In this document: one piece after another, positions 17,592 to 19,603 of the stretch
Layout: the number at the start of each line of letters is the position of its first letter
Position numbering within the stretch: position 1 is the first letter of the stretch
Assembly (NCBI RefSeq): GCF_030756675.1
Contig: NZ_JAVBXD010000046.1
Span: 1 to 32,244 of the forward strand
Reading direction: 5' to 3'
Origin: Bacillus multifaciens
Lineage (GTDB): Bacteria; Bacillota; Bacilli; Bacillales; Bacillaceae_G
Length of the DNA: 32,244 nucleotides
Notes under the pieces: generated by a model
Database searches by the model: none
What the model was told of the DNA's origin: nothing
Seen by the model: the letters and a program-made list of their open reading frames with translations, nothing else
Made by a program: the position numbers and the translations under genes

Positions 17592-17735
17592 ATGATAAAA
17601 GGAATGAATCATCTTTGCTTTTCTGTTTCAAATTTAGAGAAATCTATACAATTTTACGAAAAAGTGTTGGAAGGGAAGATACTTGTAAAAGGTAGAACAC
17701 TTGCTTATTTTGATGTGTGTGGAATGTGGGTTGCA
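17592..17735 (+). pseudogene. fosB: fosB, 5' fragment (codons 1-48), interrupted by IscB element
   Basis: This is the N-terminal third of the metallothiol transferase FosB, which inactivates fosfomycin by adding bacillithiol. The start ATG follows GAGGAG. The fragment reads MIKGMNHLCFSVSNLEKSIQ and onward to CGMWVA. It includes metal ligand His7 and Cys9. In B. cereus FosB the next residues are LNEE, which resume at 19331. Read on into the element, the frame continues through 9 foreign residues to a stop at 17760-17762. The two fragments joined give 138 codons plus stop, the normal FosB length. Confidence 0.92.
17716..17735 (+). other. Predicted IscB guide sequence (fosB-derived)
   Basis: In characterised IscB systems the guide occupies the 5' end of the omega RNA and is copied from DNA flanking the left end of the element. 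The bases upstream of the end here are fosB codons 42-48, ending ATGTGGGTTGCA. If the RNA is made, it would match an uninterrupted fosB. Length and exact edge (within a base or so of 17735) are inferred. Confidence 0.55.
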
Positions 17736-17739
17736 GTCA

Positions 17740-17990
17740 ACTACCCACCACTTAAACGCTAACACGTTTTGAAGTGGGGGCTTGAAACAAGCCCTGGTTG
17801 TCTAGCCTCAGTCTTTCATGGACTCCGTTCGTAGGTTGCATACCCAAGAATGATTCCCTAGTTCTTGGCTCTATGGTGGCTCTGTAACAGTTCTGATTGG
17901 GAAGGAACGGTCAACCACAAGCCTTCTTGTATAAGAAGTTGTCAACACCTACAAACATTGGCGAAGGGAAACAAACTCTTAGGAGGGACA
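17740..17990 (+). ncRNA. Predicted omega RNA scaffold of IscB
   Basis: About 250 bases between the element's left end and iscB contain no convincing frame but are rich in pairing. There is the end hairpin at 17748-17777, a perfect GGGCTTG/CAAGCCC stem with AAA loop (17778-17794), a CCAAGAA/TTCTTGG stem near 17843-17872, and CTTCTT/AAGAAG near 17924-17939. IscB omega RNAs are encoded at this position, immediately 5' of the gene, with similar length. Boundaries and fold are not computed. Confidence 0.7.
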
Positions 17991-17994
17991 AAAC

Positions 17995-19242
17995 ATGTGT
18001 GTGTTTGTCAAAAATTTAAGGGGAGAACCGCTCATGCCTTGCGGTCATCGCAAGGCGCGGATTCTTCTCAAACAAGGAAAAGCGAAGATTGTGGGATATA
18101 CTCCGTTTACAATTCAATTACAATATGCTACAGGTGAAGCGGTGCAACCCGTTACAATCGGTGTTGACAGCGGAGTAAAGCATATCGGCATTGCGATTAC
18201 GACTGAAGACAAAGTGTTAACAAAAGGAACCATCCAGCTACGTCAGGACGTAAAAGAAAATCTCACACTAAGAGCTACATTACGTAGAGGTAGAAGGCAG
18301 CGAAAAACAAGGTATCGCAAAGCACGTATTCTCAATCGAAAAAAGAAAGAAGGTTGGTTACCACCATCGATTCAAAGCAGAATCGATAACCAAATTCATT
18401 GGATTGAAACATTCAAGTCACTTTTACCTTCACCAAAAGTAATTGTAGAAGTAGGGAAATTTGATGCAAAAAAGCTAAAAAATCCCGATATACAAGGAAC
18501 GGAATATCAACAAGGAGATGCCTTTGGCTTTTGGAATACAAGATATTACGTATTCGCAAGAGACAATTACACCTGTCAAATCTGCAAGAAAAAAGGTGGT
18601 ATTTTGCATACGCATCATATTATTGAACAATGTAAAGGTGGCACTGATATGGCAGATAATCTTGTAACAGTGCATGAAGAGTGCCATCAAAAGTTCCACC
18701 AAGGGAAACTCAAACACAGTTTCAAGAAACCAAAACAATATAAAGAGACTGCCTTTATGAATATATTGCGGTTACAAATCATGAATCGTTTAGATTGTGA
18801 CATTACGTATGGCAGTTACACTACAGCGAAGCGAAAAGAATTAGGTTTATCAAAAACACATGTAAATGACGCAATTGCGATTACGAATCCAACACAAATA
18901 CAAGAATATGATAGAAACGGTGAATTTTGCATCAAGCAATTTAGAAAGAAAAAGCGTTCCCTACATGAAGCAACCGCAAGAAAAGGAAGGAAAACAAAGA
19001 ATACAAGTGCAAAACGGAACAAGAAAAACACACCGTATGTAGATGGAATCTATTTAGGAGATAAAGTGAAAGTATTTGGACAAGTAGGATTTGTGACAGG
19101 GTTTACAGGGAGAATGGTATACGTACAAGATATACATGGACAATATATACAAAATCCAACTAAAACTTATAAGCAAGTGAAGGTATCAGATATAGAACGT
19201 ATACACCATACGAACAATTGGCAGTTCTTACAAATCAGTTAG
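17995..19242 (+). CDS. iscB: RNA-guided endonuclease IscB
   Basis: This 415-residue homologue of the ancestor of Cas9 appears complete. An N-terminal RRXRR/PLMP region (MCVFVKNLRGEPLMPCGHRK) is followed by RuvC-I with Asp58 (VTIGVDSGVKHIGIAI). An arginine-rich bridge helix (residues about 92-117) and RuvC-II with Glu152 (VIVEVGKFD) come next. The HNH domain is inserted at about 186-238, with paired cysteines (CQIC, Cys194/197), His207/His208 in HTHHI, Asn222 and CHQKFH. RuvC-III has His289 and Asp292 (THVNDAIAI). A basic linker and a C-terminal TAM-interacting-like domain follow (GIYLGDKVKVFGQVGFVTGF). TAGGAGGG precedes the ATG. It would cleave both strands of guide-matched DNA next to a 3' TAM. 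All catalytic residues look intact. Confidence 0.93.
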   Translation: MCVFVKNLRGEPLMPCGHRKARILLKQGKAKIVGYTPFTIQLQYATGEAVQPVTIGVDSGVKHIGIAITTEDKVLTKGTIQLRQDVKENLTLRATLRRGRRQRKTRYRKARILNRKKKEGWLPPSIQSRIDNQIHWIETFKSLLPSPKVIVEVGKFDAKKLKNPDIQGTEYQQGDAFGFWNTRYYVFARDNYTCQICKKKGGILHTHHIIEQCKGGTDMADNLVTVHEECHQKFHQGKLKHSFKKPKQYKETAFMNILRLQIMNRLDCDITYGSYTTAKRKELGLSKTHVNDAIAITNPTQIQEYDRNGEFCIKQFRKKKRSLHEATARKGRKTKNTSAKRNKKNTPYVDGIYLGDKVKVFGQVGFVTGFTGRMVYVQDIHGQYIQNPTKTYKQVKVSDIERIHHTNNWQFLQIS

Positions 19243-19330
19243 GCTATGCCTAACCGAAATTCATCCCCACCTTACCGCTGGGCTCTTGCCCGTCACGCAC
19301 TTGAAGATGGGGCCTTCTTTCGGAATTACG

Positions 19331-19603
19331 TTAAATGAAGAAAAGGATATTCCGAGAAGTGAAATCTACCAATCATATACACATATTGCGTTTTCGATAG
19401 AAAAAGAAGACTTTACAGCATTAATACATCGTCTTAATGTGAATAACGTACATATTTTACACAGACGAGAGCGTGATGTGCGAGATTGTAAATCTATTTA
19501 TTTTACAGACCCAGACGGTCATAAGTTTAAATTTCATACAGGGACGCTGCAAGAGAGACTGCAATATTATAAAGAAGCAAAACCGCATATGTTATTTTAC
19601 TAA
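19331..19603 (+). pseudogene. fosB: fosB, 3' fragment (codons 49-138), with Glu115 replaced by Lys
   Basis: This fragment resumes FosB at LNEEKDIPRSEIYQSYTHIA and runs to its normal end KPHMLFY. It keeps metal ligand His66 (SYTHIAF) and the RERDVRDC loop that binds fosfomycin and thiol. The third metal ligand of FosB, Glu115 in the family motif GHKFEFHSG, is Lys here (GHKFKFHTG; codon AAA at 19529-19531). A lysine cannot coordinate the divalent metal, so the enzyme would be inactive even after precise excision. The substitution suggests loss of selection. No start or ribosome binding site serves this fragment. Confidence 0.9.

What the first reader, a model, noticed from the sequence alone, without database searches (positions are those of the whole stretch)
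17592..19603. IscB element inserted in fosB, with a predicted guide against fosB itself
fosB is split after codon 48 by a 1.6-kb element encoding an apparently intact IscB and an upstream structured leader. Deleting 17736-19330 restores a 138-codon FosB frame with no scar, which is strong evidence for a precise IS200/IS605-type insertion. In known IscB systems the guide is read from DNA flanking the left end. Here that is fosB codons 42-48, and the 3' TAM side would start TTAAATGA in the empty site. The nuclease would therefore cut uninterrupted fosB alleles, for example on a sister chromosome after excision or in DNA arriving from other strains. That links a homing-like mechanism to loss of an antibiotic-resistance gene. 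The insertion and reconstruction are seen directly; guide function is inferred.
Basis: partly seen in the sequence, partly recalled or inferred. Interest (0 to 1): 0.85.

Follow-up and report, generated by a model that had tools for sequence, protein, structure and literature searches.

The report
RNA-guided IscB transposon interrupting fosB
A small jumping element that carries an RNA-guided DNA-cutting enzyme has landed inside a fosfomycin-resistance gene, and its guide RNA very probably points at the uninterrupted version of that gene; this is how elements of this known kind are built, so the case is a clean example rather than a new mechanism.

Summary
A 1,595-bp element (17736-19330) splits fosB between codons 48 and 49. 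It carries a full-length HEARO/omega RNA (102 bits) and a 415-aa IscB with its catalytic residues. Searched apart, the fosB pieces fit FosB residues 1-48 and 49-138 and abut exactly in 11 of 11 intact orthologues. The ends recur in distant IscB elements: left end GTCAAC with random 5' flanks, right end followed by TTAAA or TTGA. Uninterrupted homologues were found for 4 of 6 relatives tried, with TTRA after the guide flank (one further, poorer homologue has TCGA). New here: the ends are shared with IS605-type elements carrying Y1 TnpA and opposite-strand TnpB, so this is a transposase-less passenger, probably moved in trans. The fosB guide with TTAAA TAM is well supported as a prediction. Self-targeting of the empty site is generic to such elements. 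The homing or resistance-loss reading is untested; distant fosB alleles carry 2-5 mismatches in the 14 TAM-proximal bases. New member of a known kind.

The parts
17592..17735 (+). fosB, 5' piece (codons 1-48)
   Evidence: FosB profile positions 1-48; solved FosB 4jh1 residues 1-48
17716..17735 (+). predicted guide segment of the omega RNA, read from fosB; about 17 nt expected to pair, TAM-proximal ~14 critical
   Evidence: position immediately 5' of the left end; pairing length and mismatch rule from OgeuIscB, PMC9640706 (passages); transcription not tested
17736..19330 (+). IscB element, 1595 bp, no TnpA frame, no target duplication
   Evidence: ends supported; no other frame over 90 aa wholly inside it
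17736..17783 (+). left end, shared with IS605-type TnpA/TnpB elements (77-88% over about 48 nt in the 11 with a close TnpB)
17736..17976 (+). HEARO / omega RNA scaffold
   Evidence: RF02033 full length
17995..19242 (+). iscB, 415 aa; D58, E152, H207/H208, H289, D292 and PLMP motif present
19239..19330 (+). right end with hairpin, shared with IS605-type TnpA/TnpB elements (about 76-84% where 52 nt or more align)
19331..19335 (+). TTAAA: target-site/TAM motif, host DNA (fosB codons 49-50)
19331..19603 (+). fosB, 3' piece (codons 49-138 and stop)
   Evidence: FosB profile positions 49-138; 4jh1 49-138
17542..17568 (+). terminator-like stem between the upstream oligopeptide-binding protein gene and fosB
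   Evidence: no more such sites than in shuffles (1 found, mean 1.5)

Best explanation
A transposase-less IS200/IS605-type element carries an IscB and its omega RNA. A Y1 TnpA from a related TnpA/TnpB element, recognising the same ends, probably placed it in trans immediately 5' of a TTAAA inside fosB. The omega RNA begins in the flanking fosB sequence, so its 5' guide is the last ~16-20 nt of the fosB left piece. The perfect target is the uninterrupted site, guide followed by TTAAA; in the occupied allele the guide is followed by GTCAAC, so the element spares itself. When the element is excised, or a near-identical fosB allele is present, IscB would cut, and repair from the occupied copy would restore the element. 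Shown by sequence: anatomy, ends, flank rule, shared ends. Inferred: TnpA acting in trans, transcription of the guide, cutting, and retention by repair.
For: HEARO full length. IscB equivalog, with D58, E152, H207, H208, H289, D292 invariant in 15 of 15 aligned IscBs and aligned to solved IscBs. fosB pieces abut at 48|49 in 11 of 11 intact orthologues; the five bases after the junction are TTAAA in 4 of 11, TTGAA in 3, neither in 4. Relative at 49% identity: an uninterrupted homologue was found for 4 of 6 elements tried, with TTRA right after the guide flank (L010; L008 against L014; L011 and L007). Right ends: TTRA after 11 of 11 distinct Agrilactobacillus ends caught by end patterns that exclude the flank; TTAAA after 4 of 4 recognised right ends in the 63-64% relatives. 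Left flanks: 19 distinct, mean pairwise identity 0.26 over 16 nt. Ends shared with TnpA (PF01797, 146.6 bits) plus TnpB (PF01385, PF07282) elements on the opposite strand. The 14 guide bases next to the left end have no second perfect match in the window.
Against: No expression or cleavage data. No TnpA was found in the window (24 window proteins scanned with Pfam; best tblastn of the L274 TnpA to the window E 0.48), and the host genome is not held, so a resident TnpA is unproven. No second copy of this exact element was found: IMG/VR pattern, phage and plasmid searches were negative. No promoter signal above chance. Irregular right ends exist: L015 has TCGA with a shortened end, L021 is broken off, L286 was not recognised. 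The two uninterrupted homologues are not letter-exact (6-bp repeat difference; last five flank positions not aligned). A second, less similar homologue of the L011 flank, L255, has TCGA at that place without gaps, and TTGA six bases on.
Confidence: 0.85

Rival explanations
1. Silent relic: the element is correctly built but the guide is not transcribed at this site, so IscB does nothing here and fosB is merely broken.
For: No promoter-like sites above chance in 17400-19700 (5 found, shuffles 6.5) and a terminator-like stem just upstream of fosB; no TnpA found in the window.
Against: IscB frame is intact with all catalytic residues; HEARO is full length; both fosB pieces are still open and fit the family end to end, which suggests that the insertion is not old.
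Confidence: 0.25
2. Homing drive on fosB: the occupied allele converts fosB-positive DNA from other strains and spreads the broken gene.
For: Guide plus TAM would match an identical uninterrupted allele; drive-like behaviour is described for TnpB in plasmids (PMC11870625, abstract and introduction).
Against: 0 of 11 fosB orthologues examined are occupied, and all 11 have 2-5 mismatches in the TAM-proximal 14 nt, a stretch where mismatches abolished OgeuIscB cutting (PMC9640706, passages). No population data.
Confidence: 0.08
3. Intron-like element (IStron type) that is spliced from fosB mRNA so that fosB stays functional.
For: Insertion is in the sense orientation and the two fosB pieces fit the family without residues lost.
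Against: The only Rfam match in 17640-19420 at E up to 0.1 is HEARO; no group I or II intron.
Confidence: 0.02

Closest known systems
IscB / OMEGA systems with HEARO RNA (OgeuIscB; Rfam RF02033; NCBIfam NF040563)
   Same: RuvC with inserted HNH, PLMP motif, omega RNA upstream of iscB with the guide at its 5' end, TAM 3' of the target (PMC9640706 passages; PMC12477157 passages)
   Different: No difference in kind found. TAM inferred here as TTAAA/TTRA instead of OgeuIscB's NNRR. The host gene is fosB
IS200/IS605 elements with Y1 TnpA and TnpB (L274, L275, L286, L287, L291, L293, L295 and others)
   Same: Left and right ends, TTAAA on the right side, same flank next to the nuclease RNA end
   Different: They carry TnpA and TnpB on the opposite strand; the fosB element carries IscB and no transposase. 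Left end GTGAAC in 11 of 11 elements with a close TnpB and a visible left end, GTCAA in the 6 IscB elements
Homing-like retention and drive by transposon nucleases (TnpB, PMC11870625)
   Same: Guide records the insertion flank; the empty site is the target
   Different: Shown there for TnpB by experiment (abstract); here only inferred for an IscB

Membership tests
IscB (RNA-guided endonuclease) | RuvC I-III with HNH insertion and catalytic residues | tested here: met
   NF040563 355 bits; D58, E152, H207/208, H289, D292
IscB (RNA-guided endonuclease) | N-terminal PLMP motif | tested here: met
   PLMP at residues 12-15
IscB (RNA-guided endonuclease) | C-terminal TAM-interacting domain | tested here: inconclusive
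   C-terminal stretch aligns with other IscBs; predicted structure too poor to compare (pLDDT 58.7)
IscB (RNA-guided endonuclease) | RNA-guided cutting | not testable with these tools
   needs biochemistry
HEARO / omega RNA | Rfam covariance model over the gathering score, upstream of iscB | tested here: met
   102.3 bits, model 1-211
IS200/IS605-type element | Precise insertion without target duplication, next to a fixed short target on one side | tested here: met
   exceptions told in the full report
IS200/IS605-type element | Hairpins near both ends | tested here: met
   DNA fold: left z -4.07; right z -2.08, 6 of 200 shuffles as good
IS200/IS605-type element | Y1 TnpA | tested here: not met
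   no frame over 90 aa wholly inside the element other than iscB; ends match TnpA-carrying elements elsewhere, so at most a non-autonomous member
Homing or gene-drive element | Biased conversion of uninterrupted alleles | not testable with these tools
   no population or experimental data

The most novel reading that the evidence does not exclude
The occupied fosB allele is a natural gene drive against a resistance gene: IscB, guided by the broken gene itself, converts near-identical fosB-positive DNA in the cell into the broken form, so that an antibiotic-resistance gene is lost and kept lost by an RNA-guided selfish element.
Probability: 0.08. Interest if true: 0.7.

Novelty: new member of a known kind. 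Interest (0 to 1): 0.35.

Why it matters
It is a clean natural case in which element ends, guide flank and TAM can all be read because the interrupted gene has intact orthologues. It shows that one set of IS605-type ends can carry either IscB or TnpB, with both RNAs running into the same flank from opposite strands, which makes exchange of the nuclease between elements directly testable. It also shows a transposon nuclease whose predicted target is a resistance gene; whether that ever spreads is an open question.

Tried and rejected
Base 3 of the left end as a marker of the nuclease (GTC = IscB, GTG = TnpB): 11 of 11 elements with a close TnpB (62% identity or more) and a visible left end have GTGAAC (L272, with a 31.8% TnpB, too), and the six IscB elements have GTCAA. 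But L281 and L285 carry a second TnpB-like lineage with GTCAAC. Of two further HEARO loci without a left-end BLAST match, L299 starts GTCAA and L307 does not (GTCTA). Rejected as a strict rule.

Structure prediction of IscB from 15 sequences: mean pLDDT 58.7, pTM 0.31; too poor, so no fold search was made.

Finding other copies in close relatives: the window's genome is not held. Draws from the class of a Streptococcus genome and its members (299, 15, 398 and 398 genomes; Bacilli, by recall) gave no near-identical copy of the stretch searched (different stretches in 17, in 18-19, and in 86). The genome-contig scan gave relatives at 63-64% (68% over part of the protein) at best, the IMG/VR scan 46% over most of the protein. 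IMG/VR: no exact match to the first 24 nt. Plasmids and phages: no megablast match of the element; plasmids by protein: below 60%; the first 17.7 kb of the window: no plasmid match. The species of the window was not fixed; a Bacillus near the B. cereus group is my inference only.

An apparent second class of left end in Agrilactobacillus was my error: those loci are on the other strand. A first pattern for the right ends of the 63-64% relatives had the wrong length and gave two false hits; the looser pattern was used instead (two false hits there, L203 and L209).

Papers: IscB with fosB, 3 hits, none about both by listing. HEARO with Bacillus and insertion, 3 hits by listing, passages of one. 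Listings and passages did not show the shared ends of IscB and TnpB elements, but four papers where they might be are not held; I do not claim that they are unpublished.

Full report
Anatomy. The window carries fosB interrupted between codons 48 and 49. The 5' piece (17592-17735) fits FosB profile positions 1-48 and the 3' piece (19331-19600) fits 49-138. The solved FosB 4jh1 gives the same split (49-138, 1-48). Between them lie 1,595 bp. HEARO RNA covers 17736-17976 over the full model (102.3 bits, gathering score 83). IscB is 17995-19242 (NF040563, 355 bits against a cut-off of 175). In an alignment of 15 IscBs, D58, E152, H207, H208, H289 and D292 are invariant. They sit in the motifs that align with solved IscBs; the OgeuIscB catalytic residues D61, E193, H247, H340 and D343 are named in PMC9640706 (passages).

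Ends and empty site. The rejoined gene was not used as evidence. Instead each fosB piece was aligned on its own to 11 intact orthologues from other genomes. In 11 of 11 the pieces abut with no residue missing or extra. The five bases right after the junction are TTAAA in 4, TTGAA in 3 and neither in 4. So TTAAA belongs to fosB and not to the element. None of the 11 is occupied.

Other copies. The nearest IscBs found are 63-64% identical, in MAG contigs L001-L003 (L004: 68% over part of the protein), then 46-51% for the longer matches in Agrilactobacillus, with many copies in two related genomes. Their left ends start GTCAAC. The 5' flanks of 19 distinct copies are random: mean pairwise identity 0.26 over the last 16 nt, maximum 0.625. 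For right ends I used patterns that stop at the element end: 11 of 11 distinct Agrilactobacillus right ends caught are followed by TTRA (5 TTGA, 6 TTAA). In the 63-64% relatives and their genome, 4 of 4 recognised right ends are followed by TTAAA (L002, L204, L205, L210). Not counted: L005 (its end differs from the pattern; TTGA by eye), L015 (shortened end, TCGA), L021 (broken end), and copies whose right end was not recognised.

Empty alleles in a sister genome. Six Agrilactobacillus elements were tried; an uninterrupted homologue was found for four. L010: left flank (one base differs) then TTGAATAA in the sister genome, and the right flank continues unbroken. L008: its left flank is followed by TTGAATCG in the sister locus L014. 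L011: left flank followed by TTGAG, with a 6-bp repeat difference (L254); a second, less similar homologue, L255, has TCGA at that place without gaps and TTGA six bases on. L007: the last five flank positions are not aligned, then TTAAAAAC (L258). For L012 only part of the left flank was found and for L006 none. L008 is a useful test because its right flank comes from another site 360 bp away, so the TTGA next to its guide was not predictable from its own right end.

Shared ends with TnpA/TnpB elements. A search of 398 genomes with the element found matches in 25 at E up to 1e-5, many to the two ends only. In the 40 loci fetched the left ~48 nt and right ~90 nt often flank elements that carry, on the opposite strand, a Y1 TnpA of 132 aa (PF01797, 146.6 bits) and a TnpB of about 370 aa (PF01385, PF07282; for the pair of L274), for example L274, L275, L286, L287, L291, L293 and L295. 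Of the 21 right-end rows, 17 show TTAAA directly after the end. L301 and L302 are cut off after TTAA, L287 is completed (TTAAA), and L286 was not recognised. In the elements that carry the close TnpB, its gene ends about 120-150 bp from the left end. Its RNA would therefore run into the same flank that IscB reads, from the other strand. I conclude that the fosB element is a transposase-less passenger of this end family. TnpA action in trans is an inference: no TnpA frame lies inside the element, none was found in the window (24 proteins; tblastn), and the host genome is not held.

How it would work. IscB is guided by a 5' sequence in the omega RNA; about 17 nt pair, and mismatches at TAM-proximal positions 1-14 abolished cutting by OgeuIscB (PMC9640706, passages). 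Here the guide is the end of the fosB left piece. In the occupied allele it is followed by GTCAAC, so there is no TAM; in the uninterrupted site TTAAA would follow. For TnpB, cutting of the empty site followed by repair from the occupied copy is described as homing-like retention and as a gene drive in plasmids (PMC11870625, abstract and introduction). That the same holds for IscB I recall from papers not held. So self-targeting of fosB is what any such element would do wherever it lands.

What is not supported. The 11 orthologues have 2-5 mismatches in the TAM-proximal 14 nt, so probably only near-identical alleles would be cut. There is no evidence of spread, of transcription or of activity. 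The promoter scan gave no more sites than shuffles (5 found, mean 6.5).

Verdict. It is a new member of a known kind, with well-fixed ends and an inferred TAM and an unusual host gene. The most novel reading, a drive against a resistance gene, is not excluded but has no direct evidence.

Noticed in passing
L008 and L014, around the left end: Same right flank in two Agrilactobacillus genomes but different left flanks: 360 bp are missing next to the left end in L008. The lost stretch starts at a TTGA that fits as a second insertion site, as if two copies had recombined and left a guide for one site beside the right flank of another.
   Followed up: partly
L204:1556-1923 and L205:138-621: Short elements with HEARO RNA and both ends but no room for IscB (368 and 484 bp), so presumably served in trans.
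   Followed up: no
L268:1056-4480: A related element whose first 237 nt are 89% identical to the window's omega RNA while its IscB is 55% identical; a 409-aa frame that looks like an IS110-type transposase (my reading, not searched) lies between RNA and IscB.
   Followed up: no
L281 and L285: A second TnpB-like lineage (372 aa, named by my reading; 23.9% to the L274 TnpB for L285) has the same GTCAAC left end as IscB elements.
   Followed up: no
window 20984-21662: Array of an 18-bp unit, 37.7 copies, inside a 280-aa minus-strand frame rich in Cys-Lys-Ser-His-Arg repeats, upstream of a CotH kinase gene.
   Followed up: partly
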